IMG/VR virus record: IMGVR_UViG_3300003332_000015
Coordinates: 18,576-82,575 of that record
Origin: a virus
Reading direction: 5' to 3' (one strand)
DNA: 64,000 nt
The notes under the pieces are model-generated. The model had not been told where the DNA came from, did not search any database, and saw only the letters and a list, made by a program, of their open reading frames with translations. Shown in pieces: positions 8,855-38,922 of this stretch (position 1 is the stretch's first letter; each line of letters opens with the position of its first letter). The position numbers and the translations under genes were made by a program.

Positions 8855-8880
8855 ATTACTATATATATTATATTAGTAAT
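8855..8880 (-). promoter_or_regulatory. Late-type motif inside an inverted repeat, before tape measure gene
   Basis: TTACTAATATAAT (8867-8879) lies inside a 7-bp inverted repeat (arms 8855-8861 and 8874-8880). The repeat ends just before the AAGG ribosome-binding site of the tape measure gene. The motif also contains the TAA stop of the upstream endonuclease. Confidence 0.6.
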
Positions 8881-9506
8881 TTTTTGTCCTGTAATGTTTT
8901 TTTTACTTTCTCAGATATTTTTCTTTTAGTTTCTTCAGAATGTTTTTTATCTTTCATTCCTTTACTTTTACTAGGGTTCTCTTTATGAGATTTTGACATT
9001 TTTCTTTTAGTTTCAATATTATGAGTATTTCCATAATTAGCATTATTTTTTCCTTTTTGAGTTATAGACATTTTTTTTCTAGTCTCATCACTACGCTTTT
9101 GACCTCTATTAGATTCTGCTCTTTTTCTTCTAGTTTCAACAGATTGCTTTATTTTTATTTTTCTACCTTTATTTGCTTTCCCTATTTTCTTTTTAGTTTC
9201 TTCAGTGTGTTTCATTTCTTTTTTTAACTGTTCATATTGTTTAGATGTTAACTTATTTTTATATTTAGTAAATCCACACATCATATAAAAAGCTTGAGTC
9301 ATTTGTTTTCCGTAAACTTTCCATAACATTAAGTGGGCTATATAATGCTCACGTGCTGTTAAAATAATTAAGTTTTCATCTTCATCAGAACCGCCCAAAC
9401 TTTTGTGTATAATATGATGATTTTCTGTGTAAACATTTTTTGGGATTGTTCTTAATTTTCTTGAAGATATAAAATTGTCGTATCTGATTTTATAAAGGTT
9501 ATTCAT
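8868..9506 (-). CDS. HNH homing endonuclease with NUMOD3 repeats
   Basis: 212 residues. The N-terminal HNH core contains YTENHHIIHKSLGG (about 25-38), an Asn in DENLIIL, and ILTAREHYIAHLMLWKVYG. Residues about 105-205 are basic NUMOD3-type DNA-binding repeats of the form S-x-E-T-K/R-x-K-M/I-S. Free-standing HNH endonucleases cut intronless alleles and spread by repair. It starts at ATG 9506 after AGGAGTTTCTA. Its stop codon lies within the late motif of the tape measure gene, so it has inserted precisely between a chaperone gene and that promoter. Four related copies occur in this window. Confidence 0.85.
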   Translation of the reverse strand: MNNLYKIRYDNFISSRKLRTIPKNVYTENHHIIHKSLGGSDEDENLIILTAREHYIAHLMLWKVYGKQMTQAFYMMCGFTKYKNKLTSKQYEQLKKEMKHTEETKKKIGKANKGRKIKIKQSVETRRKRAESNRGQKRSDETRKKMSITQKGKNNANYGNTHNIETKRKMSKSHKENPSKSKGMKDKKHSEETKRKISEKVKKTLQDKKLLI

Positions 9507-11379: not shown

Positions 11380-11790
11380 TTATAACATGTTACTTGCTTT
11401 TTCTAAATACTCACATACACCCATTAAAATCTCTTCACGTATAGTATTATCAACTAGTAGATCTTCAACTCCCATATCAACTGCAAAACCTATATCTTGA
11501 GCTAAGTCATATGGAGACATAGGACCATAAAGTGCTAAGTTAGAAATTCCTGTAGATATTGGACTAAGTTTTCTAATATCAAAATTCTCATCTAATATTT
11601 TTATCTTGTCACCTTTCTCAAGAATGGTATTCCCAATAGGAGTGTCTTGTGTAATCTCAATAGTAAGACTATCTTCTTTCTTTTTATCTTTCTTACCAAC
11701 TTTTTTCTTACACGATACACAATACCCAGTCTGTATTAGATACTTACTACCACAGTCAGGACATTTTGCTGTTTTACTTGCTTCTCTCAT
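11380..11790 (-). CDS. Zinc-ribbon protein with ILExGDKI module
   Basis: 136 residues. The N-terminus has two CxxC pairs (CPDC ... CVSC) forming a zinc ribbon (about 9-30), then a Lys-rich linker. The recurring module LTIEITQDTPIGNTILEKGD (about 43-70) follows, then a helical C-terminal domain of about 65 residues not recognised elsewhere. The module's I-L-E fits the T4 gp21 cleavage rule, so it may be an internal head protein, although it lies between tube genes. It is unlike any tail protein I know. Confidence 0.55.
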   Translation of the reverse strand: MREASKTAKCPDCGSKYLIQTGYCVSCKKKVGKKDKKKEDSLTIEITQDTPIGNTILEKGDKIKILDENFDIRKLSPISTGISNLALYGPMSPYDLAQDIGFAVDMGVEDLLVDNTIREEILMGVCEYLEKASNML

Positions 11791-11801
11791 AATATTTTTC
11801 C

Positions 11802-12323
11802 TTAAATTATGTTATCATCTAATGCTAAGAAACCAAAAGTTACATTAACAATAATTGGATCACCACTACTATAATCAAAACTAATGTCTCCAACTGTCAT
11901 TGGAAAACAACCTTTAAAATTCCAACTACCAAAACCTGGTATAGGAATATTCTCTGGAGTAACTGCCCAAACTGTCATGTTTACTCTGTTGTTTGAAAGT
12001 ACATTATCAGGAGCAATAACTCCTGTATAACTATTTGCTACTTTATTTTTCCAAGCTACTAACCCTTTATATACAAGCCAGTTTCTATCAACTCTTAAAT
12101 CAAAACTAAATTCATTCGGTGCTTCAATCTTACCAGAAGGTTTTGTGATCTTCTGTGTTTTATGATGAACCTCATAAGTACTCGTCCCTGTTGCAGGAAC
12201 AGTAAAGTTTTGAATTCTTAAAAGAGTAGAAGTAATGTCGTCTATAAATGCTATAGGTTCAATTGATACATCAAATAAATTCGATAGTGCATCATCCCCC
12301 ATTTGATAAATTTTATCTACCAT
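11802..12323 (-). CDS. Major tail tube protein (gp19-like)
   Basis: 173 residues. The features LFDVSIEPIAFIDD, TVPATGTSTYEVHHKTQK and RVDRNWLVYKGLVAWKNK, then the C-terminal GDISFDYSSGDPIIVNVTF, follow the T4 gp19 plan in which hexameric rings stack into the inner tube. The start ATG (12323) is preceded by AAGGAGATATACTA. The upstream endonuclease gene reads through this promoter and ribosome-binding site and ends in TAATG on the start codon. The sheath gene lies just upstream of the endonuclease, the normal 18-19 order. Confidence 0.85.
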   Translation of the reverse strand: MVDKIYQMGDDALSNLFDVSIEPIAFIDDITSTLLRIQNFTVPATGTSTYEVHHKTQKITKPSGKIEAPNEFSFDLRVDRNWLVYKGLVAWKNKVANSYTGVIAPDNVLSNNRVNMTVWAVTPENIPIPGFGSWNFKGCFPMTVGDISFDYSSGDPIIVNVTFGFLALDDNII

Positions 12324-13267: not shown

Positions 13268-14809
13268 CTATACGCCTATGACTTCACTCAAAATGGTGGT
13301 CTGTCCCACATTTACGAATTCAAGTACTATTCTTTCTGAATAAGGTGTTACTTGTATTCCAAGTGTATAAACAAATTTTCTAGCTGCTCTAGCTGCTCCG
13401 TCATTATTGTTTAAATCACATTGGATAATATAATCTGATAAAAGACCCGATGCTAAAATAGGATCCATTAAAGTTTCACCTTTTGAAACAGCTAGTCTTC
13501 TATGTAATTCGTCATTAAGTTTTACTATTTGATAAGTAAGTACACCTTTTAACATGTTAGAAATAATATAATCAAAAAGTCTTGCATGAGCAATCCAACT
13601 TGTATCTGATAATGAAAGAGGTGATTGTGCTGTTCTTTGTGATGTTATCATAACACCATAACTTGCATACTGTACAATAGGATTTATTCCAGCTTCATCT
13701 AATGATTGTAGAGTTGCCTCACTAGGATCGTATTCCATCTGTACAATACCAGCACCTAATTGTCCACCATGTTTATTTTCATCGATCCATGCTGGAGCAC
13801 CACCATTAAATATATTTGTCATCTGTGCATATTTTACACCAACTCTTCCAATTAAAGAAGTCCAAAAGTATGAGTTGTTATAAGTGTCTTTTACTTTTGC
13901 ATGATTCCAATAAAAAGCTAATCCTTTATTATTTATACTAAAACCATCTTTAGTTGTAATAGAAGATGCCGCATCTGAACCTGCTGGTAAAGCTAAAATA
14001 TAAGAAGCATACTTTTGGTATGTACTTCTTAATGTATCAAACAAAGCTTCTACACCAGCTATTGCTGTAGGATCCATAAATATGTCTGCTTTATATGTAT
14101 TTGACTGTTGAAAAAATGCCCAACCTAATGTTAACTCAGTTATTGTAATTGTTGCACCTCTGGCTCCATCTGAAAAAGCAACTTCAGCAGTGTCGTCAGT
14201 AAAAGATGTTATTGCTGATAGTGGATTAACTACTGCTTGAATATAATCATCACCATCTAATACATCTAATATATATATATTTTTTCCAAATCCATCTTTT
14301 GCTCCTACTACTAAAGACACATCATATGTTTCTATTAATACACTATCTTTATATAACTTTATAGTAAAAACCGAATTAGTATCATTATAAGATACTAATA
14401 CACCTAAGTCATCTACATATGGACTAGCTGCTGCAATAACGAAATGGTCTGTTACTAATGGAAAAGTAAAATCTTCAATTGTTGAAGGATCTTCACCTGC
14501 ACCAAAAACTGCTGATCCAGCATCAGATACTAAAACTCCACCTAATAATGCTGTTGCATCGTAAGGAGCTGATATCCATAAACCTGACTGTTTGTTATAC
14601 TGTATTGCTTCCCATACATCAGGGTAAGCTACAGATGGTTTACCAAATAAATCAATTATTCTTTTTTCTTGACCGGCATCTACGAAGATAGGAGTAGCTC
14701 CCCCTTTCCCGGCTCTTATTGTCATTGCACCAACAGATCCTTCTGTACCAATTACGGTAGAAGACTTGTCTATTTTGTCAACTGTTAATCTCCAACTATT
14801 TGAAGGCAT
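13268..14809 (-). CDS. Tail sheath protein (gp18-like)
   Basis: 513 residues. The N-terminus carries the T4/phage sheath signature: DKSSTVIGTEGSVGAMTIRA, then IDLFGKP and DVWEAIQYNKQSGLWISAP. The C-terminal domain (about 400-513) has DYIISNMLKGVLTYQIVK, a helical stretch and the typical ending RKFVYTLGIQVTPYSERIVL. These terminal domains hold the contractile lattice; the middle (about 85-230) is a variable surface insertion. It is preceded by a late motif whose inverted copy abuts the ribosome-binding site GGAG. Confidence 0.9.
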   Translation of the reverse strand: MPSNSWRLTVDKIDKSSTVIGTEGSVGAMTIRAGKGGATPIFVDAGQEKRIIDLFGKPSVAYPDVWEAIQYNKQSGLWISAPYDATALLGGVLVSDAGSAVFGAGEDPSTIEDFTFPLVTDHFVIAAASPYVDDLGVLVSYNDTNSVFTIKLYKDSVLIETYDVSLVVGAKDGFGKNIYILDVLDGDDYIQAVVNPLSAITSFTDDTAEVAFSDGARGATITITELTLGWAFFQQSNTYKADIFMDPTAIAGVEALFDTLRSTYQKYASYILALPAGSDAASSITTKDGFSINNKGLAFYWNHAKVKDTYNNSYFWTSLIGRVGVKYAQMTNIFNGGAPAWIDENKHGGQLGAGIVQMEYDPSEATLQSLDEAGINPIVQYASYGVMITSQRTAQSPLSLSDTSWIAHARLFDYIISNMLKGVLTYQIVKLNDELHRRLAVSKGETLMDPILASGLLSDYIIQCDLNNNDGAARAARKFVYTLGIQVTPYSERIVLEFVNVGQTTILSEVIGV

Positions 14810-15596: not shown

Positions 15597-15935
15597 TTAT
15601 ATTCTTACCTTATCAAGAGTATAAATAAAATGAGCTATTAATTCTTCTTTAGCTTCTTTTATCATATCATTTATATTTCTATGACCAAATTCTTTAGCAT
15701 CTGCATCAGTAAAATTTTGTTTTGTCTTATATGAATACTGACCAAAAGCTAACATAATATTCTGTATATGTTCAACAACAGAAACATTGTTATCATCATA
15801 CATTAAATAAATAAATTCTTCTTTAAGTTTTTTTGATTCTGTAAGAATTTTTATTTTGTCCCCAGGTTCAAGAATGTTTTCACCTATTTTAATTTCTTGT
15901 GTTATTTCAATTAAATCTTTATCAACTTTTCTCAT
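15597..15935 (-). CDS. Small head-region protein with N-terminal ILExGDKI module
   Basis: 112 residues. After MRKVDK the module DLIEITQEIKIGENILEPGD occupies about residues 7-34. The remaining ~75 residues are a helical domain with no recognised family. The architecture (short basic N-terminus, module, unique C-terminal domain) matches the proteins at 16490, 35528 and 35831. The motif I-L-E followed by P-G could be a prohead-protease site, though Pro after the cut is unfavourable. Preceded by a late motif and AAGGAG. Confidence 0.55.
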   Translation of the reverse strand: MRKVDKDLIEITQEIKIGENILEPGDKIKILTESKKLKEEFIYLMYDDNNVSVVEHIQNIMLAFGQYSYKTKQNFTDADAKEFGHRNINDMIKEAKEELIAHFIYTLDKVRI

Positions 15936-15959: not shown

Positions 15960-16490
15960 TTTAAATATTGTGTATCCTACACTAACAGAAAAAGTAATAT
16001 CTAAATTATAATAGATACCTATATTAAACTTTTCTAATATAATAGTATTTATACCTATTCCTATTGTTGGTAAGGAGTAAATTCCATCAGGATTATTATG
16101 TTTATAAGTTAGCATAGGACTAAGAGATATAATCTCTGTTTTCATAAACTCTTTTAATTCTTTAGATAAGTCTGTAATACGTTTTTCAAGTACTTCTATA
16201 TTTGGTAATAACTTGTCATCAATACGTGTTGTAAGAGCATCTATGGTGTCTTGCTGTGTCAATGTGATGTCATACACTACATCATACTCTTCTTGTAATG
16301 TCTTATTATTGTCTAATGACTCACTTAAATTATCTTCAGCTTCCAAATATAAATTAGTCATTATGATGTAAGCATTTTTAAGATCAAAATAATCATTAGG
16401 TACACTTAATTCATACTCACCAATATTAATAACTTCTTGTGTAAATACAAAAGAAGTTAAAAATATAAATAAAATTAAAAATTTTTTCAT
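15954..16490 (-). CDS. Secreted coiled-coil/beta protein, possible outer-membrane lysis partner
   Basis: 178 residues. A clear signal peptide (MKKFLILFIFLTSFVFTQ, cleavage about residue 17) without a lipobox Cys. Then a coiled coil (about 45-115) and a beta-rich C-terminus ending with an aromatic residue, resembling a small outer-membrane-associated domain. The gene two upstream (17073-17426) encodes an inner-membrane coiled-coil protein, so together they could act as a spanin-like envelope-disrupting pair. No sequence hallmark of known spanins is present; structural alternatives remain open. Confidence 0.45.
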   Translation of the reverse strand: MKKFLILFIFLTSFVFTQEVINIGEYELSVPNDYFDLKNAYIIMTNLYLEAEDNLSESLDNNKTLQEEYDVVYDITLTQQDTIDALTTRIDDKLLPNIEVLEKRITDLSKELKEFMKTEIISLSPMLTYKHNNPDGIYSLPTIGIGINTIILEKFNIGIYYNLDITFSVSVGYTIFKY

Positions 16491-17080
16491 TATTGATTCT
16501 TATAACTGTCGTAAACAGAAAGACCAGTTCTTCTATATACTTCATCAGAAAAATCTTTCCATTGATCTTTGTCTTGAATATCTGTTATAAATTGTGTCCA
16601 ACCCATATCAAGTAAAGCATCCCATGCAACATCGTTATCTAATAAAACAGCTTCAAGTCTTTTAACATTACCAGCAGCTATATCAGTTATAACATAACCA
16701 CTAAATCCTGAATTCCATTTAGCTTTTTCTTTTAGTATTTTAACTTTGTCACCTTTTTCTAAAATAAAACTACCAATTTTTATGTCTTCGGTAATTGTTA
16801 TTAAATCTTCTTTTTTAATTTCTTTTTCAATTCTCATTATCTTTTCCTCCCACGGCATTCTTGGAAATGTATCTTTATAATCGACTACTTCATCCCACTC
16901 ACAATTTCTTTTTAAAAACGATAGAATAAGTCCTTTATTCCTATTTGCTTTTAAATCAATTACTGCTTTTCTTATTACTTTAGTATCATTACAATCAAAA
17001 TTGTATACTCTTCCATTAATATTTAATTTAAGTGAGTAATCTGTATAGACTAAAATATCTACATTAAATGGACTATCCAT
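16490..17080 (-). CDS. ILExGDKI-module protein with two possible starts
   Basis: 196 residues from ATG 17080, which overlaps the end of the previous gene. A second ATG at 16837 has an excellent ribosome-binding site (GGGAGGAAAAGATA) and gives a 115-residue protein starting MRIEKEIKKEDLITITED, exactly like the other module proteins, with the module at about residues 10-40 of the short form. The N-terminal extension is an acidic/aromatic domain of about 80 residues of unknown role. Long and short products may both be made. Confidence 0.55.
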   Translation of the reverse strand: MDSPFNVDILVYTDYSLKLNINGRVYNFDCNDTKVIRKAVIDLKANRNKGLILSFLKRNCEWDEVVDYKDTFPRMPWEEKIMRIEKEIKKEDLITITEDIKIGSFILEKGDKVKILKEKAKWNSGFSGYVITDIAAGNVKRLEAVLLDNDVAWDALLDMGWTQFITDIQDKDQWKDFSDEVYRRTGLSVYDSYKNQ

Positions 17081-17646: not shown

Positions 17647-17668
17647 GTCTTGTCATAGTCTTGTCATA
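17647..17668. repeat. 11-bp tandem duplication
   Basis: GTCTTGTCATA present twice in direct succession; responsible for the frameshift in the endonuclease gene at 17423-18099. Confidence 0.95.
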
Positions 17669-18160
17669 TCACTAACTATTCTTCCTTTCTGAGATTCTGA
17701 TATCTTATGTTTATGTTCTTCACTCATATGTTTATTATAGTAATGATGATTTTTACCTTTTTTAGCTTCTGATATTTTTTTACGTGTTTCAATAGTACAT
17801 GGTGGTTTATCTTGACGTAACCTAGCGTGCTGTTTAGAGGTTAACTTAGGAGAATATTTTACATTTTTTGACATAAACATAAAAGCATAAGTCATTGACC
17901 CTCCATAAATCTTCCAAAGAATTAGATGAGCAATGAAATGTTCTCTTGCTGTAAGACGAATTATATTTTCAGGTTCATCACTTCCACCTAAAGCTCTAGG
18001 TATGATATGGTGTTTTTCTGTATAAGTATCTTTTGGGATTTTTCTTAATTTTCTTGAATCGATAAATTTGTCGTATCTAATTTTATGAATAGAATTCATT
18101 GTACTAACCTTTTTAATTTTTAAGTCACTTCAATGACTGTTAATATATTATTAAAAGTTA

Positions 18161-18223: not shown

Positions 18224-18817
18224 TTATTCTGTTGACGCTACTTCTGCAGGTTCACTTGTTGCAGGTTCAGTTTCAAGCGGAAAGACTTGAATTTTATCAC
18301 CAGGTTCTAAAATAAAATCTGTATCTGGTAATCTTACTTCCTGTTCAACATCAATGATGATTGCATCAGCATCAAAAGCTGCTTGAGCTGATTCTAAACC
18401 AGGATCTTTTATTTCGTCCTCTTCTTCTTTCACTTTGTCCTTGTCTTCTAACATTTTGTCTTTCTCCTCGATTGACTCATCTTTACTTAATTTTTTAGAA
18501 ATAGTTGTCATTGCTTTATCCAACTCTTTCATAAATTCATTAGCTATTTTATCATCTGATGTAGCAAGACCTTTTAATAGTTGAAGTCCTTTCATCTGGG
18601 ATTCATTATCACCACCAAAATTACCTTGCATATCTTTTACTATTTTTTTAGTATCTACTTTTTCTTTTATTTTTTCCATCTTTTCTCTCCATTGTGTATA
18701 ACAGACAGCAACTCTTTGTTCCTGTGAATCAAACTCTTTATTTTTAGTTAATGTACTTATACATCGACTTATAAAATCTTTTTCTTTTTCAGCTTTATTA
18801 GGTTTTGGTAAAGGCAT
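18224..18817 (-). CDS. Head-associated protein with FISRC motif and C-terminal ILExGDKI module
   Basis: 197 residues. The N-terminus MPLPKPNKAEKEKDFISRC, followed by DSQEQRVAVCYTQW, is the 'PKP...FISRC...QR.AVCY.QW' motif found in many phage head-maturation proteins and protease-associated proteins. The middle is acidic, lysine-rich coiled coil. Near the C-terminus (about 150-180) lies a variant module DVEQEVRLPDTDFILEPGDK. The combination suggests a prohead core or scaffold-associated protein, processed by the prohead protease. Inference from motifs; no enzyme activity proposed. Confidence 0.6.
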   Translation of the reverse strand: MPLPKPNKAEKEKDFISRCISTLTKNKEFDSQEQRVAVCYTQWREKMEKIKEKVDTKKIVKDMQGNFGGDNESQMKGLQLLKGLATSDDKIANEFMKELDKAMTTISKKLSKDESIEEKDKMLEDKDKVKEEEDEIKDPGLESAQAAFDADAIIIDVEQEVRLPDTDFILEPGDKIQVFPLETEPATSEPAEVASTE

Positions 18818-18821
18818 AATT

Positions 18822-19004
18822 TTATCCTATTAAATTTCTTTGCATCGTATTTATAAATTGACTCATAAATTCTTTATCATTAGGTAATACATCTAAAACT
18901 GCTTGTGCAAATTGTGATCCACCGTTAGGATTCCTCATAAGAAGTTTTACCATATTTTGCATAATAATATCATCTTCTTTTAGACTTTTCTTTATTACTT
19001 TCAT
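18822..19004 (-). CDS. Small head-region protein, unknown
   Basis: 60 residues, helical. The N-terminus MKVIKKSLKEDD contains an L-K-E triplet that fits the T4 prohead-protease rule (L/I-x-E). It overlaps the ADP-ribosyltransferase-like gene by one base and is 4 bases from the FISRC gene, so all three are probably co-translated. Confidence 0.5.
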   Translation of the reverse strand: MKVIKKSLKEDDIIMQNMVKLLMRNPNGGSQFAQAVLDVLPNDKEFMSQFINTMQRNLIG

Positions 19005-20806
19005 TACATAAATTTCCTTAATATACCTATTAAAATTTTAATTATTGGTTTTGGTATTGGTAATGAGTCTGATCTATTTTCCATTTGATCTAACATATAA
19101 GTATAATAAGCTTTATTAGCTATAAAATACTTTGTCATTAAACCAGCTGGAGTATCTACTACAATACCACCATCTTTTTCCACTGAGTGTACTACATCAC
19201 CAAATATATTTTTTATTCTTGGTATCAGAGTTTTAACAAATAATTTAGGAGGTTGTTTAAATTCTCCTCCACTTCTTTTCTCTAACATAATAGCTAGATT
19301 CTGTGTCATTACTCCCCATATAGGATCTCGACCTACTTCTACTTGCATTTGTGTAAATGCACCGATAATAGATTTAGGAGAACCAAAAGTTGCTACTAAT
19401 TTATACATACCACTATTTTGTTTTCTAGCAGCTATTCCACCTGTTTTATCTCCAAAGAAAGTCCATGCTACTGCACGACTTTCAAACTTACCTTGATCCC
19501 AAGAAGCACCTACTGCTTTTTGGTATGAGTCTCTGAAATTAGAATATAGAGCATCTTGCTCTTGTTTTGATAAATCATAGTATTTAAAACTTTCATTAAG
19601 TACATGAGAATATTTAATATTATAAAGTCCATCAATAATACTATCTATATAAACAGATTCATTAAGAGGAGGTTCTGTTGAAATTATAAATCTTTTAGCT
19701 GTTTTAATTTCACCTGTTTTCCATCTAGGAATAGATGTTCCCATTGTACCAATATCTTCTTTCCATTCACCACCTGACCAAATACCGTCATGCCATATTC
19801 CACCAGAAAAAATACCACCTAGAAAATTACCGTAACTCCAATCTCCACCACTAAAATTTCCTTTGTGCCATTTACCTTTTTTCCATATACCATTTAACCA
19901 AACATCACCGTACCATTGACCTGATACCCAAGTACCCTTATTCCAAATAAATTCTTTATCTTCTGATATAATAATTTCAGCTTCTTCTACTTTAGCTTTC
20001 ACAAACCAAGGAAAATCTTTTTGAAAATCTTTAAGACTATACCCTTCAGGGGTATCAATAGACTTTACAGTACCTTTAAAATAGTCTAATAAAATTTCAG
20101 CTTCATCTGCTCTTGACTGTACTTTACCCATGTCCTTTGCAGGTATCCATCCACCATTAGGTAGTTTTTTACCTGTAGAAATTACACCGTCACTTCCTAC
20201 TTCATAGTCAATAATTTTACCGTCATAATCAGTTTTAGCATATTCAAAAGGAATAGCAGTATCATAAGCATATGAAACTACAACATTACCATCATGATTA
20301 CCGGTAAATATAATTCCTCTTACCCCTCGAATACTACATATACCATTTTTTACATAAGAATCAACAAAATTATTATAAGCAACGTCTGCTGAGTAAGATG
20401 GTTCATCTAATGTTTTCTCTAACATCTTTGACCAATTAAATATATTTCTAGGTAAATCAATAGTATCATGATAAATCCTATAATGATCAATTAACTGGTC
20501 ATTCAATGTATATTTATCACCAAAAACAGATTTCGAAATATTATAATCAAAAATAAGTAAATTTTTAGGGTTAATACGACACTTTAATAATGTATCACCA
20601 TAGTGTGTCATATTACTTTTTAGTTGTGAAGAAAGATCATATGTTAAATAAAATCCTTTTCCATACATTGATCCATACCCAGGTTTAAATCCAGTATCAA
20701 TAATTCCTAGAGCATCTCCCATACTTGTTCTATGATAAGCAAGTAAATAATTACTATGATATGTTATGGATTCTTTTAATACTGTTCCAAAATCTATTTT
20801 TCTCAT
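19004..20806 (-). CDS. PARP-like ADP-ribosyltransferase fused to pentapeptide W/F-x-x-G-x repeats
   Basis: 600 residues. Residues about 20-190 resemble the PARP-type transferase core: AYHRTS (H25) for NAD binding, GYGSMYGKGFYLTYD (Y53) matching the PARP G-x-G-K-G-x-Y signature, and VVVSYAYDTAIPFEY near 175-190, where PARPs have NEYVVYD. The usual catalytic Glu position is Asn here, so activity may be mono-ADP-ribosylation or lost. Residues about 288-348 are twelve W/F-x-x-G-x pentads. The C-terminal ~220 residues form an unrecognised domain. The N-terminus ...FGTVLKES has an L-K-E, like the gp21-cleaved leader of T4 Alt, an injected transferase. Confidence 0.6.
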   Translation of the reverse strand: MRKIDFGTVLKESITYHSNYLLAYHRTSMGDALGIIDTGFKPGYGSMYGKGFYLTYDLSSQLKSNMTHYGDTLLKCRINPKNLLIFDYNISKSVFGDKYTLNDQLIDHYRIYHDTIDLPRNIFNWSKMLEKTLDEPSYSADVAYNNFVDSYVKNGICSIRGVRGIIFTGNHDGNVVVSYAYDTAIPFEYAKTDYDGKIIDYEVGSDGVISTGKKLPNGGWIPAKDMGKVQSRADEAEILLDYFKGTVKSIDTPEGYSLKDFQKDFPWFVKAKVEEAEIIISEDKEFIWNKGTWVSGQWYGDVWLNGIWKKGKWHKGNFSGGDWSYGNFLGGIFSGGIWHDGIWSGGEWKEDIGTMGTSIPRWKTGEIKTAKRFIISTEPPLNESVYIDSIIDGLYNIKYSHVLNESFKYYDLSKQEQDALYSNFRDSYQKAVGASWDQGKFESRAVAWTFFGDKTGGIAARKQNSGMYKLVATFGSPKSIIGAFTQMQVEVGRDPIWGVMTQNLAIMLEKRSGGEFKQPPKLFVKTLIPRIKNIFGDVVHSVEKDGGIVVDTPAGLMTKYFIANKAYYTYMLDQMENRSDSLPIPKPIIKILIGILRKFM

Positions 20807-20854: not shown

Positions 20855-21655
20855 TTACTTTTTCTTCTTTTGTTTTTGCCATTGTTTAAGAGCTGCTTGT
20901 CTTAATTTTTCTCTAGTTTCTTTAGATACAATTTTACCTTTATTTGATTTTGATATTTTAAAACGTGTTTCCTTTGTTATAACTCTTCCTTTACTTATTT
21001 CACTTATTCTTTTCTTTTTCTTATCAGCTACATCTTTACCATATCTTTCTTCATATGAAATACCTTTTTGTGATTTACTTATTTTCTTTTTTGATTTATC
21101 AGAATGATGTTTACCTGTCATACCAGGACTAGGATTATCTTTTTTAGAATCACTTATTTTCTTTTTAGTTTCTTCTTATCGAGGTCTCCCTTTTAAAGAA
21201 CTACTAACTTTTTCTTTCCACTTTTTAGCACCTTCTTTGCCCATTGTCTCGATATGTGTTTTACCTTTTTGTATTTTACTAAGATGATTTTTAACTTCTT
21301 TAGAACGTATTTTTCCTCTATTTGAATCACCAATTTTTTTCTTATGTTCTTCGCTCATTTCTATACTTTCTTTTAATCTTTGGTATTGTTTAGATGTTAA
21401 AGTATTAATATGTCTACCGTCTTGTGATAGTAACCAAAAAGCATATGTCATTTGTTTTCCATAAGCTTTCCACAAAATTAGGTGAGCGATATAGTGTTCT
21501 CTTGCTGTTAAGATTATAAGATTTAAAGGTTCATTAGAGCCACCCAAGGATCTTGGGAGAATATGATGTTCTTCTGTATAAAAATTTTTTGATCTTTTTC
21601 TAATAGGACGTGATTGGATAAATTTGTCGTAGCGGATTTTATGAATATTCTTTAT
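20855..21655 (-). pseudogene. HNH homing endonuclease inactivated by stop codon and start loss
   Basis: A single reading frame spans 267 codons and aligns with the other HNH endonucleases. It has KIRYDKFIQSRPIRK, TEEHHILPRSLGGSN and LTAREHYIAHLILWKAYGK, then NUMOD3 repeats. The codon where the relatives have ATG is ATA (21653-21655), after a good AGGAG. An in-frame TAA (21176-21178) lies between SSLKGRPR and EETKKKISDSKK. Both lesions are point changes, so this is a recently decayed copy. The nearest usable start is a TTG inside the HNH core (21547). Confidence 0.8.
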
Positions 21656-21780: not shown

Positions 21781-23265
21781 TTACTTAAATTGATATTCTC
21801 TTAACATTTGAAAAGCTCTTGTTTGCCAAGCTGAATCTGGTCGACCTGCTTCATGAGCTGCAAGTCTAAAAATTAGTATATAATTAAAAGATCTATAATC
21901 CATTTCTGATAATGCAGGAAGAGCTGCTGTAGCAAACTCAAAAACATCATCTCTCATACTATCGGTTATTTCAGTAATTTCGGCATACATATTATATAAT
22001 GAATCTTTTATTAAAGCTAATGATTCTTCTTTAGTCCAATTTAATGTATAAGTAACACCTTTTAATCTTTGTTCTATAGCTGAATTTAAAGTTAATAAAT
22101 TTGATATAAAAATAATTTTTGATTCAAAATCGAAATCTTCATCTATAACAATATCAGTTCCATAAACTTTAATTGGATTAATAACACTTATTCTTCTTAC
22201 TGGTTTCATATCAAGTACTTTTTTAAGTAAGTTAACCATTGCCTCATCTTTAAAAACTGAATCATTATCATCAAAAATAACTATTTCATCTTTTCTATTC
22301 TGATAAAGAGCATTTATAAATCCAGTATAACCACCCATTTTTTGATCAACTTTTACAGGTTTAACACCTTCTTCTTTTAAGACTCTTTCTACTGTTTCAG
22401 TTTTTCCAGTACCAGGCTTCCCATGTAATAATAAACCAGGTAATACTTTTGATCCTTGTGCTAATAAACGAACATCAGCTTCAATATTCTCCATTATAAT
22501 TACTGGTCCTGTTTTAAAAGAAGCTTCATAAATAGCTTGAAGAGCAGGATCTTTTAATGTAGCTGTAACAGGTGTACCAACTTGAACAGTAACACCAGGT
22601 ACTGAAGCTGTATTAACTTGTATTTTACCGTTTTTAGAGAGTTCCTTTACATAATAAGTTAACTTACCAGCATTTAATGTTTTTCCTGATCTATATTTAG
22701 TTTGAAAAAATGTTGTAATAGTTATTGCTTTACTGTGATAATCATATCTACCATCTTTAAGGTCTTGTACATCCTGTGGATTATCATCAAACCATGCCAT
22801 AAGCATATCAGTTATCTTTACTGCTTCATGTAGTTTACCACTTCTATTTGTAGATTCTTCGTATCTTAAGTATTCACCAGTAATTATGTCAACTACTTGA
22901 TCAATAGTTTGTACTATATTAAAACCATTAAGATCAATATTTTGATCAGGAGTTAAACTATCTTCTTCACTATATAAATCAATAGACTGTAATACTTCAC
23001 TACCTGTTATCATGAAATTAAATCTAATAGCCCCTGTTCCCATAAACCCAAAATAAGATTGGAATTTACCATAAGCATCTGTAAACATCTCAGGAATAGG
23101 AGAAATACCAATTGGTATACCTACTCTTCTTGAAATTACAGCAGCTGCTTTCTGTGCTACAAATAAAGATTTACCTTTTCTGAAAGAAGCCTCTTGTAGC
23201 ATAAAGTGATCTTCTAATTCTTTTATATCACTTTTTTCAAATACTTCGTTATTAATTAATCGCAT
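21781..23265 (-). CDS. AAA+ ATPase of the late region, unknown target
   Basis: 494 residues. The ATPase core is C-terminal: Walker A GKPGTGKT (about 282-289), Walker B VIFDDND (about 325-331), sensor-like IIFISN (about 388) and a helical lid to the end. Residues 1-250 form a separate N-terminal domain with no match I recognise. Such single-copy AAA+ proteins can remodel proteins or load complexes, but replication loaders and terminases look different. Its place in a late operon suggests a role in assembly or packaging, or in attack on a host complex. Confidence 0.7.
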   Translation of the reverse strand: MRLINNEVFEKSDIKELEDHFMLQEASFRKGKSLFVAQKAAAVISRRVGIPIGISPIPEMFTDAYGKFQSYFGFMGTGAIRFNFMITGSEVLQSIDLYSEEDSLTPDQNIDLNGFNIVQTIDQVVDIITGEYLRYEESTNRSGKLHEAVKITDMLMAWFDDNPQDVQDLKDGRYDYHSKAITITTFFQTKYRSGKTLNAGKLTYYVKELSKNGKIQVNTASVPGVTVQVGTPVTATLKDPALQAIYEASFKTGPVIIMENIEADVRLLAQGSKVLPGLLLHGKPGTGKTETVERVLKEEGVKPVKVDQKMGGYTGFINALYQNRKDEIVIFDDNDSVFKDEAMVNLLKKVLDMKPVRRISVINPIKVYGTDIVIDEDFDFESKIIFISNLLTLNSAIEQRLKGVTYTLNWTKEESLALIKDSLYNMYAEITEITDSMRDDVFEFATAALPALSEMDYRSFNYILIFRLAAHEAGRPDSAWQTRAFQMLREYQFK

Positions 23266-26435: not shown

Positions 26436-27323
26436 TTATTTTCTTGTGGTTCCAAACCACCACCCATCTAAAGGTAGTTCCTGTGCATCAATTCTTTTAT
26501 TAACTACACCGTTTGTTATTCCTTTTTTACCTTTATTTTTACTAGGTTTACCTAGCTTACCTAAAGATATTTTATTTCCTATTTCTTGTTTTTCTTTTTC
26601 AGTTCTATTATTCCATATTTTCTGACTACCATTAGAAATATTTAGTCGATTTTGTTTACTACGTACAACACCTTTTGCATTTTGTTTACCTTTCATACCT
26701 TTACTTCTAAGTTTAGACAATCTATCCCTTTCCTGTTTAGACGTGTTAATCCATTGTAATTTTGCAGCTTTACTAATTTTATTTCTTCTTATTTTTTCTA
26801 CAATAGGATTAACAACCTTATTCAACTGTGCAATAGACATTCTATTTTTTTGTTCCTCAGTACGTGGTAAATTCTTTCTATTACGTTGTGCTTTTTGTTG
26901 TACATCTTTTTCTTTAAAAGGAGAGTTAATAGAAGCCCATTTCTTTTTTCGAGTCTTCATTTCCTTTCCAAGTTCTACTCCATATATCTCCTCATAAGTT
27001 TTACTTTTTTTTAAAAAAGACAAATATTTTATACTTTCCTCTCTTAGTTTAGAATATTGTCTAGAAGTTAATCTATAGTTATATCTATTAAACCCTTGCA
27101 TCATATAAAAAGCTTGAGCCATTTTCCCACCATAAACTTTCCAAAGAATCATATGAGCTATAAAATGTTCTCTTGCCGTTAATATAATTATATTTTCTTT
27201 TAAGTCATTTCCACCAAGAGACCTTGGAAGAATATGATGATTTTCTGTATAAGTATCTTTTGGGATTGTTCTTAGTTCCCGTGACTTAATAAATTTATTA
27301 TACTTATCTTTATATATCTCCAT
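26436..27323 (-). CDS. HNH homing endonuclease with NUMOD3 repeats, full length
   Basis: 295 residues. HNH core TENHHILPRSLGG, then LTAREHFIAHMILWKVYGG; after it a long basic NUMOD3 region and a C-terminal domain ending in DGWWFGTTRK. It is the longest intact member in the window. Its ATG (27323) directly follows the late motif (TACTAATATAAT-ATGGAG), so a transcript started there would be leaderless. Inserted between the UvsY-like gene and hsp20. Confidence 0.85.
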   Translation of the reverse strand: MEIYKDKYNKFIKSRELRTIPKDTYTENHHILPRSLGGNDLKENIIILTAREHFIAHMILWKVYGGKMAQAFYMMQGFNRYNYRLTSRQYSKLREESIKYLSFLKKSKTYEEIYGVELGKEMKTRKKKWASINSPFKEKDVQQKAQRNRKNLPRTEEQKNRMSIAQLNKVVNPIVEKIRRNKISKAAKLQWINTSKQERDRLSKLRSKGMKGKQNAKGVVRSKQNRLNISNGSQKIWNNRTEKEKQEIGNKISLGKLGKPSKNKGKKGITNGVVNKRIDAQELPLDGWWFGTTRK

Positions 27324-33944: not shown

Positions 33945-35354
33945 TTAAAGGTTATTTAATTTCATTCTTACAAGATAATTAGAATTAAGTACTTTTGAAT
34001 CACCGAAGTGGAAAAGACCCTTTTCTGAATATCCTCTAGCATACTCTAAAGTTGTTGATTCATAAAGTGGAATCAATGAACCGAATAGAATAGCCATATC
34101 AGCTGATTCGTTTGGATTTCTCCAGATACCTAACATCTCATCAGCAGGAATAATACTTGTTGGTGCCTGATATACAGGTTTTCCTAAGAAAGTACCAATT
34201 CTATAAATTCCAATTTCTGGTTGTAATCCAGTTGCATCGAACTTATCATGTAATGTTAAGTATGAACAAGCATCTACACCAGCAACAATAACATTTACTC
34301 CACCTCTTTGAACTGCATTGTAAATAGTTTTACCAGCAGCAGCAATAGTACGAGTAAGTGACTGTGCGTGAGCGATTTCACTATCAGCACCAGCAGCAGC
34401 AAAGTCTGCATTAAAAGTAACAAGTGCATTCTTTAAAGAATGTCTATAAGCCATTTTAACAGCAGCGAAATCTAATGATTTCTTTAACTCGTCAGCAGCT
34501 CCAGCAACAAGTGAACTTTCTACATCTATGTCTAAAGTTGTTCCAAGTAATAACTCAGTCATCTTTGTCCATGAAACATAAAGTGGGTGTGGTTTAGCTC
34601 TTAACTGATAATCTCTTAACTGTAGTTCAACAGACTGAATTTCTCCAGTAGTTGCTTCAGAATCAAAATTGTAAGCCATTAATACTACGTCACCACCACC
34701 TATAGCGGGATTAAAAGTAATCTGTGTTACACCAGTATCATAATTAACTGATCCAGCTGAAAGTAATGTACCTACGATATTCCCAGCACCATCATCAACA
34801 GCAACTGGTTCTTCGTTTACAAAGATTTTAACTGAAAATGGTCTAAGAGGAGCATTTGCTACTGTTAAATCATAAACTGTTTGTGCGCCAGCATCTGTCA
34901 TTTCTTCTTCTTCAACTTCTGATGAGTATCTATAAGAAGGACTTTCGTGTGTTACTGTATCTATTGTAGCACCTCTTTTAGAAGCTGAGTAAACAGGACT
35001 TAAATAGTAAACGCTATCTCTAGCTGTTACCATTGGATAATCACTGAATATTTCACCTCTAACACTATTAGGATAACCTAATCTTACAATTCTTAATACA
35101 TTTTCAGGTGTTGTCTGAAAAGCATTTGAAATCTGTGTTTCTGTTAGTGCTTGTAAATGTTGTGCTTGATTCTCTAGAACAATAGCAGCACCTATAGCTT
35201 TGTTCTCATCTTTATCTCTAAGTTCTTTTAGACCTTCACCTACGCCTTTTTCTTTAGACCAAATCTCAAAGAGTTCGTTTCCTCTTTGTTTTCTTTCTGA
35301 AAGTAACTCAGCTCTTTCTTCAAGAACTACTTTCTCTTCCATTTTTTTACGCAT
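33945..35354 (-). CDS. Major capsid protein (gp23-like)
   Basis: 469 residues from ATG 35354 (AGGAGTG upstream). A longer frame to 35426 lacks a good start. T4 gp23-type signature: N-terminal delta region with AIVLENQAQHLQALTETQIS, where L-T-E fits the gp21 cleavage rule at about residue 72. The mature shell domain follows, opening with LRIVRLGYPNSVRGEIFSDY and RDSVYYLSPVYS. C-terminal KVLNSNYLVRMKLNNL. It forms the HK97-fold shell. The ribosome-binding site lies in the 3' arm of a 9-bp hairpin. A strong terminator follows. Confidence 0.9.
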   Translation of the reverse strand: MRKKMEEKVVLEERAELLSERKQRGNELFEIWSKEKGVGEGLKELRDKDENKAIGAAIVLENQAQHLQALTETQISNAFQTTPENVLRIVRLGYPNSVRGEIFSDYPMVTARDSVYYLSPVYSASKRGATIDTVTHESPSYRYSSEVEEEEMTDAGAQTVYDLTVANAPLRPFSVKIFVNEEPVAVDDGAGNIVGTLLSAGSVNYDTGVTQITFNPAIGGGDVVLMAYNFDSEATTGEIQSVELQLRDYQLRAKPHPLYVSWTKMTELLLGTTLDIDVESSLVAGAADELKKSLDFAAVKMAYRHSLKNALVTFNADFAAAGADSEIAHAQSLTRTIAAAGKTIYNAVQRGGVNVIVAGVDACSYLTLHDKFDATGLQPEIGIYRIGTFLGKPVYQAPTSIIPADEMLGIWRNPNESADMAILFGSLIPLYESTTLEYARGYSEKGLFHFGDSKVLNSNYLVRMKLNNL

Positions 35355-35358
35355 TATT

Positions 35359-35404
35359 ACACTCCTAAATGCTTTATAAAATTTATGTTTTTTTATAAGA
35401 GTGT
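35359..35404 (-). promoter_or_regulatory. Hairpin hiding capsid gene ribosome-binding site
   Basis: Minus strand ACACTCTTA (35396-35404) pairs with TAGGAGTGT (35359-35367), nine pairs with one G-T. AGGAG, the capsid gene Shine-Dalgarno site, is in the 3' arm. Confidence 0.55.
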
Positions 35405-35495
35405 GGTGAATTTCAACTTTCCACAATTCTTTTTTTTTCTATATACTTTTTAATATCTTATTTATAAAATATTACGCTTTTTTCATTTTATTTAT

Positions 35496-35527: not shown

Positions 35528-35818
35528 TTACATCATACTTGTATCAGCAAAAATATCATATGGCTCAATATCATTAAGTATATTCTTATAAGTTTCAACT
35601 ATTTGAATTAAATTTTGTTCAGTATTATCAAAACCTCTAGGTCCTTCAAACCATTGAATTATAGATTGAGTTATATTATCAAACTCAGTATCATATACTT
35701 TTCCAGTATCTACTCTACCTGACTCAATTATTAAAGCAATTCGATCACCTGCTTCTAATACTGTTTCACCAACTGTCACTTCTTCTTTTATTTTAATTAA
35801 ATTTTTGTTATTTTTCAT
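35528..35818 (-). CDS. Small head protein with ILExGDKI module
   Basis: 96 residues. MKNNK then the module NLIKIKEEVTVGETVLEAGD (about 6-25, followed by R-I-A-L-I); the remaining ~65 residues are unrecognised. V-L-E-A is an especially good match to the T4 gp21 site (x-E followed by small residue). Placed between the capsid and scaffold genes, in keeping with a core/internal protein. Confidence 0.6.
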   Translation of the reverse strand: MKNNKNLIKIKEEVTVGETVLEAGDRIALIIESGRVDTGKVYDTEFDNITQSIIQWFEGPRGFDNTEQNLIQIVETYKNILNDIEPYDIFADTSMM

Positions 35819-35830
35819 TATATTTCCTTT

Positions 35831-36241
35831 TTATATAAAAGAGAGTTGTTTAGCTTTAACTGCAAAATAGAAATACATACCTGAAGATGTAAGAACAATT
35901 ACATCATCATTAACTTCATCATACTGTTCAATTTGATCTATATCATTCCAAGCTATACCAACTTCAAATGATTTTGTTCCATAATAAAAATGTCCCATAT
36001 TTTTAGTTTCATACCAATCAATTTTGAATGGTTTATCAAACTTAATATAAGTACCTTTACCACTTCCTATATTATATTCAGTAGCTCCAACAGTATACTT
36101 TTCTATCACAGATTTAAAAGTTTCAATATCCATAGGTTTTAACTGTTCATTAATTAAACGTATTTTATCACCTTTTTCAAGAATAATATCACCTACTTTA
36201 ACTTCACTTTTAATTTCTATTAATTCGTTTTTCTTTCTCAT
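35831..36241 (-). CDS. Small head protein with ILExGDKI module
   Basis: 136 residues from ATG 36241 (AAAGGAACTATA upstream), giving MRKKNELIEIKSEVKVGDII; a frame to 36265 has no better start. The module spans about 6-32, and the remaining ~100 residues form a beta-rich domain (KPFKIDWYETKNMGHFYYG). Same layout as 35528 and 15597. No known family. Confidence 0.6.
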   Translation of the reverse strand: MRKKNELIEIKSEVKVGDIILEKGDKIRLINEQLKPMDIETFKSVIEKYTVGATEYNIGSGKGTYIKFDKPFKIDWYETKNMGHFYYGTKSFEVGIAWNDIDQIEQYDEVNDDVIVLTSSGMYFYFAVKAKQLSFI

Positions 36242-36267
36242 TATAGTTCCTTTAAATATGAGCATAC

Positions 36268-36623: not shown

Positions 36624-37352
36624 TTATAAATCTATAGGCTTAGTCATATCAAAAGTTGCTATAACATTTTGATTATGAATAAGTTCTACTTCATCTTGAT
36701 ATGAATTAAAATAAATTCTATATTTTTTATTATATGAGTCAAAAGCTTGCTCATCATAATGGCTTTCTTTAATTAGTTTTTTTTTTTCAGAAACTAATAT
36801 AATTTTATCACCTTTCTCAAGTATAATATCTGTACCTGGTATTGGTGTGTCTTCCTCAACTGTGATAATTTCTTCGTCTTTTTTAGAATCTTTATCATCT
36901 TTAGCATCGTCTTTAGCGTCTGCTTTACGATCATTATCTTTTTTCTTATCATCAGCTTTCTGTTTAGCTTTTTCTTTTTCTCTATCATCTGCTTTGTCTG
37001 TATTAGCAGCCGTTGCTTCTTTTTTCTTATCGTCTTTTTTGTCAGGATCATCATCATCTTTTTTATCAGAATCTTTTTTATCCTTATCATCTTTATCTTT
37101 ATCATCTTTTTTGTCATCTTTTTTGTCATCTTTTTTGTCATCAGCTTCATCGATAACAACTTTTTTAGTATCAGAATCCTCACGAATACCCATACCGTTT
37201 AACATGTCAACAACTTCATCAAAAGCAATATTATAAATCTGTGCTACCATAGAGGAAGCATCTTTAAAATTAAGACCATCTTCTTGTACAAAATCTAAAA
37301 AAGCCTCTTTAACATCTTTATCAAAAGATTTTTCTTTAATTATTTTTCTCAT
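36624..37352 (-). CDS. Prohead core-type protein with KKDD repeats and ILExGDKI module
   Basis: 242 residues. N-terminal ~70 residues helical (MRKIIKEKSFDKDVKEAFLD, with an I-K-E triplet). Then about 90 residues of Lys/Asp repeats (KKDDKKDD type), encoded by a 12-base tandem unit, then the module VEEDTPIPGTDIILEKGDKI (about 160-190) and a C-terminal domain. Very charged and extended, as prohead core proteins gp67/gp68 are. Two bases after the protease-scaffold gene. Confidence 0.6.
   Translation of the reverse strand: MRKIIKEKSFDKDVKEAFLDFVQEDGLNFKDASSMVAQIYNIAFDEVVDMLNGMGIREDSDTKKVVIDEADDKKDDKKDDKKDDKDKDDKDKKDSDKKDDDDPDKKDDKKKEATAANTDKADDREKEKAKQKADDKKKDNDRKADAKDDAKDDKDSKKDEEIITVEEDTPIPGTDIILEKGDKIILVSEKKKLIKESHYDEQAFDSYNKKYRIYFNSYQDEVELIHNQNVIATFDMTKPIDL
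37093..37143. repeat. Tandem 12-base repeats encoding K-K-D-D
   Basis: The plus strand repeats GTCATCTTTTTT (K-K-D-D) at least three times here. A nearly identical tract is in the neighbouring scaffold gene (37675-37750). Confidence 0.7.
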
Positions 37353-37353
37353 C

Positions 37354-38922
37354 TTAGTTCCATCCCTTTCTAATTTTTAAAGGAGAAGATTTGTATTTAG
37401 AAACAATAGTTTGTTTTTCTTCTGCACTCTCTTTAATAATTGGTTTAACCTTAATTGGAGATACATAATCTTCAACTAAATCTCTTAAATTAAGATAAGT
37501 TTTCTGTGCTTCAAATACTGTTCTACACTTCATAATTTCTGATTTAATACTAACTATTTTTGGATTAGCTATTTTAAGGTCTTCATAGTAGTATTGAACA
37601 CTATCTGATTTAAAGTTATTAGCAACTTCTTCTACGACTTCATCTTTTTTCTTGTCATCTTTATCTTTGTCGTCTTTTTTATCAGAGTCCTTATCATCTT
37701 TTTTGTCGTCTTTTTTGTCGTCTTTTTTGTCGTCTTTTTTATCAGGATCTTTTTTATCTTCAGCTTCTTTTTGAAGTTTAAGATTTTCTTTCTTAAGAAG
37801 AATAAGTTCCTTTCTAAGTCTATCTACTTCAGTTTCCTGAGTTTCAGCATAAACAAGTAACTCTTTATACTCTTTAGCAGAAGCCATTGTATTCTTTTCT
37901 GCTAATGCTATTTTATACATTTCAGTTATTTTCTTTTCACGAAGTTTAATATCGTCCAGCATCTCTTTTGCTTTGTCATATTTCTTTTCGATTAAGTCAA
38001 TATTTTTCTGTATATCTAATTTTTCTTTTTTAGTTTCCTCATCTTTGACTTTAACTTCTTCTTTAAGAGTATCAACTTCACCAGCTTTTTCAGCTAACGA
38101 ATAAATTTCTTCATTAAGTGTTTTAATTCCTTCTGTAGCTTCTGTGATATACTCACTAGCAATATCCTCCATACCATCACAGTATTCAAGAATTTCATTA
38201 TAAGCATACACTTTCTCTTTTAAAGAATCAGTTTCATTAACTGCTTTAAAAAGTTGTTTAACACCTAATCTAAGATTTTTCTCTTCTATGGTTAACTTTT
38301 TAGTTTTACTTTTTTCCATAATTGGTTCCCTATCCTTTGTCTCCTTTTTAATATTGTCAATTACAACTTCTTTAATTTCTTCTTTAGTTTTAATTGACTC
38401 CTTTGTTAAATATACTTGATAACTAGGATCAAGAACAAAGTCAAAATATCTTTCTAATTCATAAGATTCAGTAATAATGTTTTTATTTTCATCTACTTCT
38501 CCATAACCTGAAGAAGAAACACCTAAACCGATACCTCTACTTATAATTTTTTCTAATTTAATTTCAAAAGCTTCATCTACAATGTATACATCAGCATACA
38601 GTATACCTTCTTTTATATGAGGATTTTCAGCAACACCAACAATTCTGTCTACTGATCCCGAATCTTCTGGATGATCCTTAAGAGAAAAAGTTTTTTTATT
38701 TTCTTTTACTACTTTTTCACCAAGTGACTCTAAGTAAGTACGTCCATTTAAATTCTCTTCATTAAGTTTCCAAACTGGTACTTCATAAAAAGAAATGGCT
38801 TGATATGTTTTACCTTCTGCTTCTACTATCTTTTTAGTAGGTTTACTATGTTCTGTTAAAGGTAGAACATTGTTGTTCCAGTCTTTAGCGAAATTTTCTA
38901 TTAAATGGAGTTTTTCACTCAT
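37354..38922 (-). CDS. Prohead protease fused to scaffold (gp21+gp22-like)
   Basis: 522 residues. Protease part (about 1-190): catalytic His in LKDHPEDSG (H84), Ser in GLGVSSSGYGEV (about 136-138) and late YFDFVLDPSYQ, as in T4 gp21/HK97 proteases. After LTKES comes a long coiled coil (about 200-395) and a KKDD repeat tract (about 398-440), then a C-terminal ~80 residues. In T4 these are two genes, 21 and 22; here they are one frame. Self-cleavage sites L/I-x-E are frequent. Preceded by a late motif. Confidence 0.8.
   Translation of the reverse strand: MSEKLHLIENFAKDWNNNVLPLTEHSKPTKKIVEAEGKTYQAISFYEVPVWKLNEENLNGRTYLESLGEKVVKENKKTFSLKDHPEDSGSVDRIVGVAENPHIKEGILYADVYIVDEAFEIKLEKIISRGIGLGVSSSGYGEVDENKNIITESYELERYFDFVLDPSYQVYLTKESIKTKEEIKEVVIDNIKKETKDREPIMEKSKTKKLTIEEKNLRLGVKQLFKAVNETDSLKEKVYAYNEILEYCDGMEDIASEYITEATEGIKTLNEEIYSLAEKAGEVDTLKEEVKVKDEETKKEKLDIQKNIDLIEKKYDKAKEMLDDIKLREKKITEMYKIALAEKNTMASAKEYKELLVYAETQETEVDRLRKELILLKKENLKLQKEAEDKKDPDKKDDKKDDKKDDKKDDKDSDKKDDKDKDDKKKDEVVEEVANNFKSDSVQYYYEDLKIANPKIVSIKSEIMKCRTVFEAQKTYLNLRDLVEDYVSPIKVKPIIKESAEEKQTIVSKYKSSPLKIRKGWN
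37675..37750. repeat. Tandem 12-base repeats encoding K-K-D-D (second tract)
   Basis: Plus strand GTCGTCTTTTTT units, five or more, inside the scaffold part of the protease gene. Similar tract, with the same neighbouring S-D-K-K-D-D and D-P-D-K-K-D-D pieces, at 37020-37143. Confidence 0.7.

What the first reader, a model, noticed from the sequence alone, without database searches (positions are those of the whole stretch)
19004..20806. PARP-like transferase fused to twelve W/F-x-x-G-x pentads
A PARP-type core (H25, GKGFYLT with Y53, then VVVSYAYD) with the third catalytic position changed to Asn is followed by a repeat of aromatic-Gly pentapeptides and a novel C-terminal domain. The N-terminal L-K-E resembles the gp21-cut leader of T4 Alt, an injected ADP-ribosyltransferase. 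Combined domain order is unfamiliar to me.
Basis: partly seen in the sequence, partly recalled or inferred. Interest (0 to 1): 0.75.

Follow-up and report, generated by a model that had tools for sequence, protein, structure and literature searches.

The report
Phage PARP-like, W-repeat, acetyltransferase-fold fusion
A large phage carries, among its virion genes, a 600-residue protein that joins a PARP-like ADP-ribosyltransferase domain, a run of tryptophan/glycine repeats and an acetyltransferase-fold domain; other phages keep the two end domains but swap the repeat between them, as expected for a multi-part protein used to modify the host.

Summary
The ORF (window 20806..19004, minus strand, 600 aa) is real, and so are H25, GKGFY53, L-K-E at 10-12 and twelve in-register W/F-x-x-G-x pentads (11 with Gly; 20,000 shuffles gave at most 5).

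Three corrections. (1) The 'novel' C-terminal domain is a divergent GNAT acetyltransferase fold: AlphaFold pLDDT 89, and all 50 listed PDB matches are GNATs. (2) The third catalytic residue is probably not Asn174, which is variable and usually basic, but D172, invariant in 15 relatives (H-Y-D). (3) The domain order is not unique. PARP-like domain, repeat, GNAT recurs in phage contigs with other repeats: RHS/YD (L025), LPQL-type (L034, L051, L057, L095) and helical (L073). The GNAT domain is also fused to the anti-CBASS domain Acb1, Nudix and polyvalent-type proteins.

The PARP assignment rests on motifs and sub-threshold profile scores; its own structure model failed (pLDDT 38). It is not T4 Alt (R-S-E class).

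Best reading: a virion-cluster, probably head-packaged, two-enzyme host-modifying effector of the 'polyvalent protein' kind. L-x-E-(S) motifs at the N-terminus and before the GNAT domain suggest prohead-protease sites. Packaging, cleavage and activity are inferred. ART plus GNAT in one phage polypeptide is published (PMC5512222); the swappable-repeat layout is the new part.

The parts
19004..20806 (-). 600-aa ORF: PARP-like domain, W/F-x-x-G-x repeat, GNAT-fold domain
20771..20806 (-). N-terminal leader, residues 1-12 (MRKIDFGTVLKE), candidate prohead-protease propeptide ending at L-K-E
   Evidence: E12 invariant in 15 relatives; L-x-E site list; cleavage inferred
20207..20770 (-). PARP-like ART domain, about residues 13-200; H25 at 20732-20734, Y53 at 20648-20650, invariant D172 at 20291-20293
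   Evidence: PF00644 sub-threshold match; family alignment
19946..20017 (-). cap before the repeat, residues 264-287, homologous to caps of W-repeat proteins in huge phages and PspYZU05
19766..19945 (-). twelve W/F-x-x-G-x pentads, residues 288-347
19589..19666 (-). junction, residues 381-406, with two L-N-E-S motifs (381-384, 403-406), candidate internal protease sites
   Evidence: cleavage inferred
19007..19579 (-). GNAT-fold domain, about residues 410-600
18822..19004 (-). downstream 60-aa gene, translationally coupled by a one-base overlap, with an L-K-E near its own N-terminus; function not known, may belong to the same unit

Best explanation
A two-enzyme phage effector, made with the virion proteins and probably carried in the phage head and injected with the DNA. 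The N-terminal PARP-like ART (H25-Y53-D172) would transfer ADP-ribose from NAD+ to a host target, the C-terminal GNAT-fold domain would acylate a host target or bind CoA, and the aromatic/Gly repeat between them acts as a spacer or target-recognition module. The short L-x-E leader, and probably the L-N-E-S at the junction before the GNAT domain, would be recognised by the phage's prohead protease, as the leaders of T4 Alt and the T4 internal proteins are. Shown: ORF, domain order, GNAT fold (predicted), family-wide architecture, location in the virion gene cluster. Inferred: ART fold and activity, D172 as third catalytic residue, packaging, cleavage, host target.
For: GNAT fold: AF2 pLDDT 89; 50 of 50 listed PDB matches are GNATs, best E 2.1e-3, prob 1.0; BFVD includes a NAT_SF-annotated phage protein at 1.4e-13. 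PARP: PF00644 match and motif; H25, Y53 and D172 invariant in 15 sequences; PARP16/PARP10 weakly matched by the family profile. Recurrent architecture with different repeats in L025, L034/L051/L057/L095 and L073; YD repeat in L025 confirmed at 4.7e-7. Location: same strand and direction as portal, protease, major head protein, tail tube and sheath genes. Leader: E12 invariant; L-x-E at GNAT junctions, 12/18 against 19% background; L-x-E N-termini over-represented around the PARP-family genes, 38-56% against 0-19% further into the same proteins. Literature: phage ARTs are often encoded beside head genes and likely packaged (PMC9503650); ART and GNAT occur in the same injected polypeptide (PMC5512222).
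Against: The PARP Pfam score is below the curated cut-off and no usable PARP model was obtained; Foldseek on that model was meaningless. In this phage's own proteome L-x-E N-termini are not enriched (25% against 25-28%), so packaging rests on homology and gene position. The GNAT domain lacks a recognisable R/Q-x-x-G-x-G/A CoA loop and has no Pfam match, so it may be inactive or merely a binding fold. The prohead protease's cleavage specificity in this phage is unknown.
Confidence: 0.6

Rival explanations
1. A host-modifying enzyme made and used inside the infected cell and not packaged, as T4 ModA and ModB are; it rewires host transcription or translation, or blocks a nucleotide-based defence, during infection.
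For: The same GNAT domain is fused to Acb1 and Nudix, enzymes that act on nucleotide signals in the cell. No L-x-E leader enrichment in this phage.
Against: The gene lies in the virion cluster on the same strand; the family conserves an L-x-E just before the domain.
Confidence: 0.2
2. A tail or head structural protein in which the PARP-like and GNAT-fold domains are relics or binding folds and the W-repeat is the working part.
For: The W-repeat module with the same cap sits at the C-terminal end of 1335- and 1696-residue proteins of huge phages that have no PARP or GNAT similarity. No CoA-loop motif; no Glu at the third PARP position.
Against: H25, Y53 and D172 stay invariant in relatives as low as 25% identity, while the repeat is the part that is replaced.
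Confidence: 0.1
3. A toxin paired with the coupled 60-aa gene as its antidote, used for superinfection exclusion or competition.
For: One-base overlap of the two genes; ART toxins occur in phage toxin-antitoxin pairs (PMC9503650).
Against: No comparable small gene directly follows L034, L051, L057, L095 or L025; no PADLOC match for the window protein; the 60-aa protein has no family match.
Confidence: 0.05

Closest known systems
Phage polyvalent proteins with ART plus GNAT domains (Iyer et al. 2017, PMC5512222)
   Same: ART and RimI-like GNAT domains in the same phage polypeptide, predicted to be injected with the DNA; the ART described there is an H-Y-D type. The GNAT family found here also occurs inside giant multi-domain proteins (L026-L028, L094).
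   Different: Here a compact 600-aa, two-enzyme protein with a PARP-like ART and a swappable repeat between the enzymes, in a phage with a T4-type portal; no giant multidomain array.
T4 Alt
   Same: Possible delivery route: short N-terminal propeptide, prohead protease, ART injected with DNA (PMC9026906).
   Different: Alt belongs to the R-S-E ART class (PMC5512222); this is H-Y-x with no detected similarity, and it carries a repeat and a GNAT domain.
PARP/PART family (PF00644), including phage PARPs noted in jumbo phages (PMC7824862)
   Same: H...MYGKGFY motif aligned to PARP16 and PARP10.
   Different: Score below the family cut-off; no Glu in the last strand.
W-x-x-G-x repeat proteins of huge phages and PspYZU05 gp54 (annotated 'PIP5K-like')
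   Same: Homologous cap plus W-x-x-G-x repeats.
   Different: No PARP or GNAT similarity was detected in those proteins; only the repeat module is shared.

Membership tests
PARP catalytic domain (PF00644) | Score over the curated Pfam cut-off (26.7 bits) | tested here: not met
   16.6, 17.6 and 19.7 bits
PARP catalytic domain (PF00644) | His of strand 1 and Tyr of the [MF][FY]GKG-x-Y motif | tested here: met
   H25 and Y53 invariant in 15 sequences; aligned with PARP16/PARP10
PARP catalytic domain (PF00644) | Catalytic Glu in the last strand (poly-ADP-ribosylating members) | tested here: not met
   No Glu at 172-175 in the window protein or relatives; D172 invariant, 174 is N/R/K/H
PARP catalytic domain (PF00644) | ART fold | tested here: inconclusive
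   AF2 model pLDDT 38; Foldseek matches meaningless
H-Y-D ARTs of polyvalent proteins (Tox-ART-HYD2 clade) | H, Y and an Asp on strand 5 | tested here: inconclusive
   H25, Y53, D172 all invariant, but strand position and homology to that clade were not established
T4 Alt/VIP2 (R-S-E) ARTs | R-S-E active site | tested here: not met
   The conserved active-site candidates are H, Y and D; no Alt-type Pfam or PHROG match
GNAT acetyltransferases | GNAT fold | tested here: met
   Confident model; top 50 PDB matches all GNATs
GNAT acetyltransferases | R/Q-x-x-G-x-G/A pyrophosphate loop | tested here: not met
   The strand-to-helix turn reads GSPKSI (residues 475-480) in the window protein; alignments
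GNAT acetyltransferases | CoA binding and acyl transfer | not testable with these tools
   needs biochemistry
Polyvalent (multi-effector) phage proteins | Two or more effector domains in one phage polypeptide | tested here: met
   PARP-like plus GNAT-fold domains
Polyvalent (multi-effector) phage proteins | Packaged in the virion and injected | not testable with these tools
   Only gene position and leader motif bear on it
T4-type capsid-targeted internal proteins | Short N-terminal propeptide (10-19 residues in the T4 internal proteins) ending at (L/I)-x-E | tested here: inconclusive
   Sequence fits (12 residues, LKE) and E12 is conserved, but there is no genome-wide enrichment in this phage

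The most novel reading that the evidence does not exclude
A cleavable effector polyprotein: the prohead protease cuts at the L-x-E leader and again at the L-N-E-S junction before the GNAT domain, so one gene delivers two separate injected enzymes, and the repeat between the fixed catalytic domains is an exchangeable aiming part (W-pentads, YD, LPQL-type and helical repeats in different phages; LRR-like in relatives without the GNAT domain).
Probability: 0.3. Interest if true: 0.75.

Novelty: new variant of a known kind. Interest (0 to 1): 0.55.

Why it matters
If the reading holds, the protein shows a modular plan for phage host-takeover proteins: constant NAD-using and CoA-type domains with an exchangeable repeat between them. 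It also identifies a GNAT-fold family that no Pfam model recognises and that recurs beside counter-defence enzymes (Acb1, Nudix, PARP-like). That family could be used as a marker for finding unknown injected or anti-defence enzymes, and the L-x-E junctions make a direct test by virion mass spectrometry possible.

Tried and rejected
Whole-protein and N-terminal single-sequence scans of viral contigs found no relatives; the two-sequence alignments did. Scans of bacterial and archaeal genomes with the GNAT and PARP alignments found none. tblastn of the PARP part against phage records: no match. AF2 of PARP plus repeat gave pLDDT 38, and Foldseek on it gave nothing useful; not used as evidence either way. 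PF00644 rings in the window's phage but at none of the relatives' PARP-like loci when their contigs were searched; the one other match there is a different ART-like ORF. I read several GNAT partners (TPxGVY and LYHFTP groups) as ART-like by eye, but profile-profile comparison with the PARP family found no homology, so that stays a motif-level lead. The idea that the whole phage uses L-x-E leaders was tested and not supported for this genome. Whether the pentads are of the Qnr pentapeptide type: only E 0.065, not claimed. PADLOC gave no hit for the window protein. A tblastn of the prohead protease found no phage relative, so its specificity could not be inferred. Two further literature searches for this layout returned no paper; only open-licence papers are held, so this is weak evidence of novelty.

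Full report
What is there. The window is part of a 146,575-base IMG/VR virus contig (window = bases 18576-82575 of it), 29% G+C. Window 20806..19004 on the minus strand is a single 600-aa ORF with a weak ribosome site and a one-base stop/start overlap with a 60-aa gene. The gene is read in the same direction as a phage structural cluster: tail tube (11802-12323), tail sheath (13268-14809), major head protein (33945-35426), head-maturation protease with a long charged tail (37354-38922) and T4-type portal (38985-40814).

The repeat. Twelve W/F-x-x-G-x units run in one frame from residue 288 to 347; 11 of the 12 have Gly at position 4. In 20,000 shuffles of that segment the best in-phase count was 5 and the longest run 4, against 11 and 9 observed. 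The repeat, with the cap before it (residues 264-287), is homologous to a module in two huge-phage ORFs and in a Pseudomonas phage protein; a query ending just after the first pentads (residues 226-300) matches L004, L005 and L003 at 4e-9, 3e-7 and 8e-6 in direct comparisons. It is a mobile phage module and was seen nowhere else in this phage. A beta-solenoid is the natural guess, but no model supports it.

The N-terminal domain. PF00644 (PARP) aligns to residues 17-60 below its cut-off and is the only such match in the whole phage (E 3.6e-5). Relatives were found only after pairing the window with L025 (39% identity), then with more rows. In 15 aligned sequences E12, H25, G49, G51, Y53, Y56, Y69, G70, A143, G164, G169 and D172 are invariant (the numbers there are lower by 3). 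A profile of the family gives PARP16 and PARP10 as coherent but statistically weak PDB matches over the H...GxY region. D172, two residues earlier, never changes. Polyvalent-protein ARTs are described as H-Y-D (PMC5512222), so D172 is the better candidate. This is inference: the structure model of this region failed.

The C-terminal domain. It matches a 735-kb phage protein at 41% identity and, through growing alignments, about 50 viral loci, some of which are overlapping or near-identical copies. The AF2 model of residues 385-600 has pLDDT 89.2 and pTM 0.81. Every one of the 50 listed PDB matches is a GNAT-type acyltransferase (best E 2.1e-3, probability 1.0, TM-score 0.33-0.47 on the query). 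The two best BFVD matches are phage proteins, one annotated NAT_SF. The usual CoA-loop motif is not visible, so activity is open.

Architecture across phages. The layout PARP-like, repeat, GNAT recurs in L025 (YD/RHS repeats, 4.7e-7), L034, L051, L057 and L095 (LPQL-type repeats) and L073 (helical repeats). L073 also has an N-terminal nucleotidyltransferase-like stretch, weakly similar to NadD and CoaD (E 0.006-0.007, far below cut-off). Other PARP relatives carry LRR-like repeats (L031, L032, L035, L036, L038; LRR_4 at 1e-9 in L032) or helical repeats (L040, L058) without GNAT. One 257-kb contig holds six PARP copies. The GNAT domain is also fused to Acb1 (PF23474, 1e-28 to 1e-37: L010, L015, L070, L082; the same layout by eye in L076 and L080), to Nudix (L029, 7e-17) and to giant multi-domain proteins, and stands alone in many phages. 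Two further partner groups look ART-like by eye, but profile comparison did not link them to the PARP family.

Leader and junction. L-x-E occurs at residues 10-12 and, as L-N-E-S, at 381-384 and 403-406. Of 18 proteins with an internal GNAT domain, 12 have [LIVMF]-x-E-[SAGTD] just before it, against 19% in random windows of the same proteins. Some of these are close relatives; merging them by eye leaves about 9 of 13. In the loci of PARP relatives L-x-E N-termini are over-represented (38-56% against 0-19% further into the same proteins), but not in the window's own phage. Genes next to the PARP-repeat-GNAT genes often start alike (MITFRKFLVEK, MIKFKEFILREG, MKFKDILKEVLTE), and a similar stretch (VTFKKYLMLKES) sits inside L034, L051, L057 just before the GNAT domain, as if a gene with its own leader had been fused on. 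T4 targets internal proteins, including the injected ART Alt, with short propeptides removed by its prohead protease (PMC9026906). The analogy is good; it is not shown.

Mechanism and verdict. Most likely this is a virion-cluster, injected host-modifying effector with two enzymes and a repeat between them. It belongs with the published polyvalent proteins, in which ART and GNAT domains already share a polypeptide (PMC5512222; see also PMC9503650 and PMC7824862). New here are the fixed-ends/variable-repeat layout, a GNAT family without a Pfam model and the L-x-E junctions. Novelty: new variant of a known kind.

Noticed in passing
window 11380-11790, 15597-15935, 16490-17080, 18224-18817, 35528-35818, 35831-36265, 36624-37352 (all -): Seven proteins of the virion cluster share a short motif, roughly I-x-[IV]-x-x-[ED]-x-x-[IVL]-...-[IV]LE-x-GD[KR][IV], at an N-terminal, internal or C-terminal position; possibly a docking or assembly tag.
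   Followed up: partly
L010, L015, L070, L082 (also L076, L080 by eye): The anti-CBASS domain Acb1 (PF23474) is fused to the same GNAT-fold domain in several phage contigs.
   Followed up: partly
L029:7506-8486 and L105:4506-5486: Nudix hydrolase fused to the GNAT-fold domain, with L-T-E-S between them.
   Followed up: partly
L073:2973-5594: Nucleotidyltransferase-like start (weak NadD/CoaD resemblance) fused to PARP-like domain, helical repeats and GNAT: domains linked to NAD and CoA in one protein.
   Followed up: no
G001 (contig of L031), six places: Six PARP-like copies on one 257-kb contig; those read (L031, L035, L036) carry varied LRR-like repeats.
   Followed up: partly
L051:6908-8224, L057:7127-8440: Gene directly downstream of PARP-repeat-GNAT reads as ART-like by eye (VGVHFSKG...DPIGIYAFP...IHSNEPNQ), also with a F[KR]KYILLNE leader.
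   Followed up: partly
window 8868-9506, 17653-18099, 20855-21547, 26436-27323: Several HNH/homing-endonuclease-like ORFs by reading (TENHHI / TEKHHI...LGG motifs, basic repeat-rich tails); the 20855-21547 stretch looks like one such gene split into two ORFs.
   Followed up: no
window 21781-23265: AAA ATPase gene (PF00004 1.1e-5; PHROG 1250 of unknown function 1.3e-19) upstream of the target, same strand.
   Followed up: no
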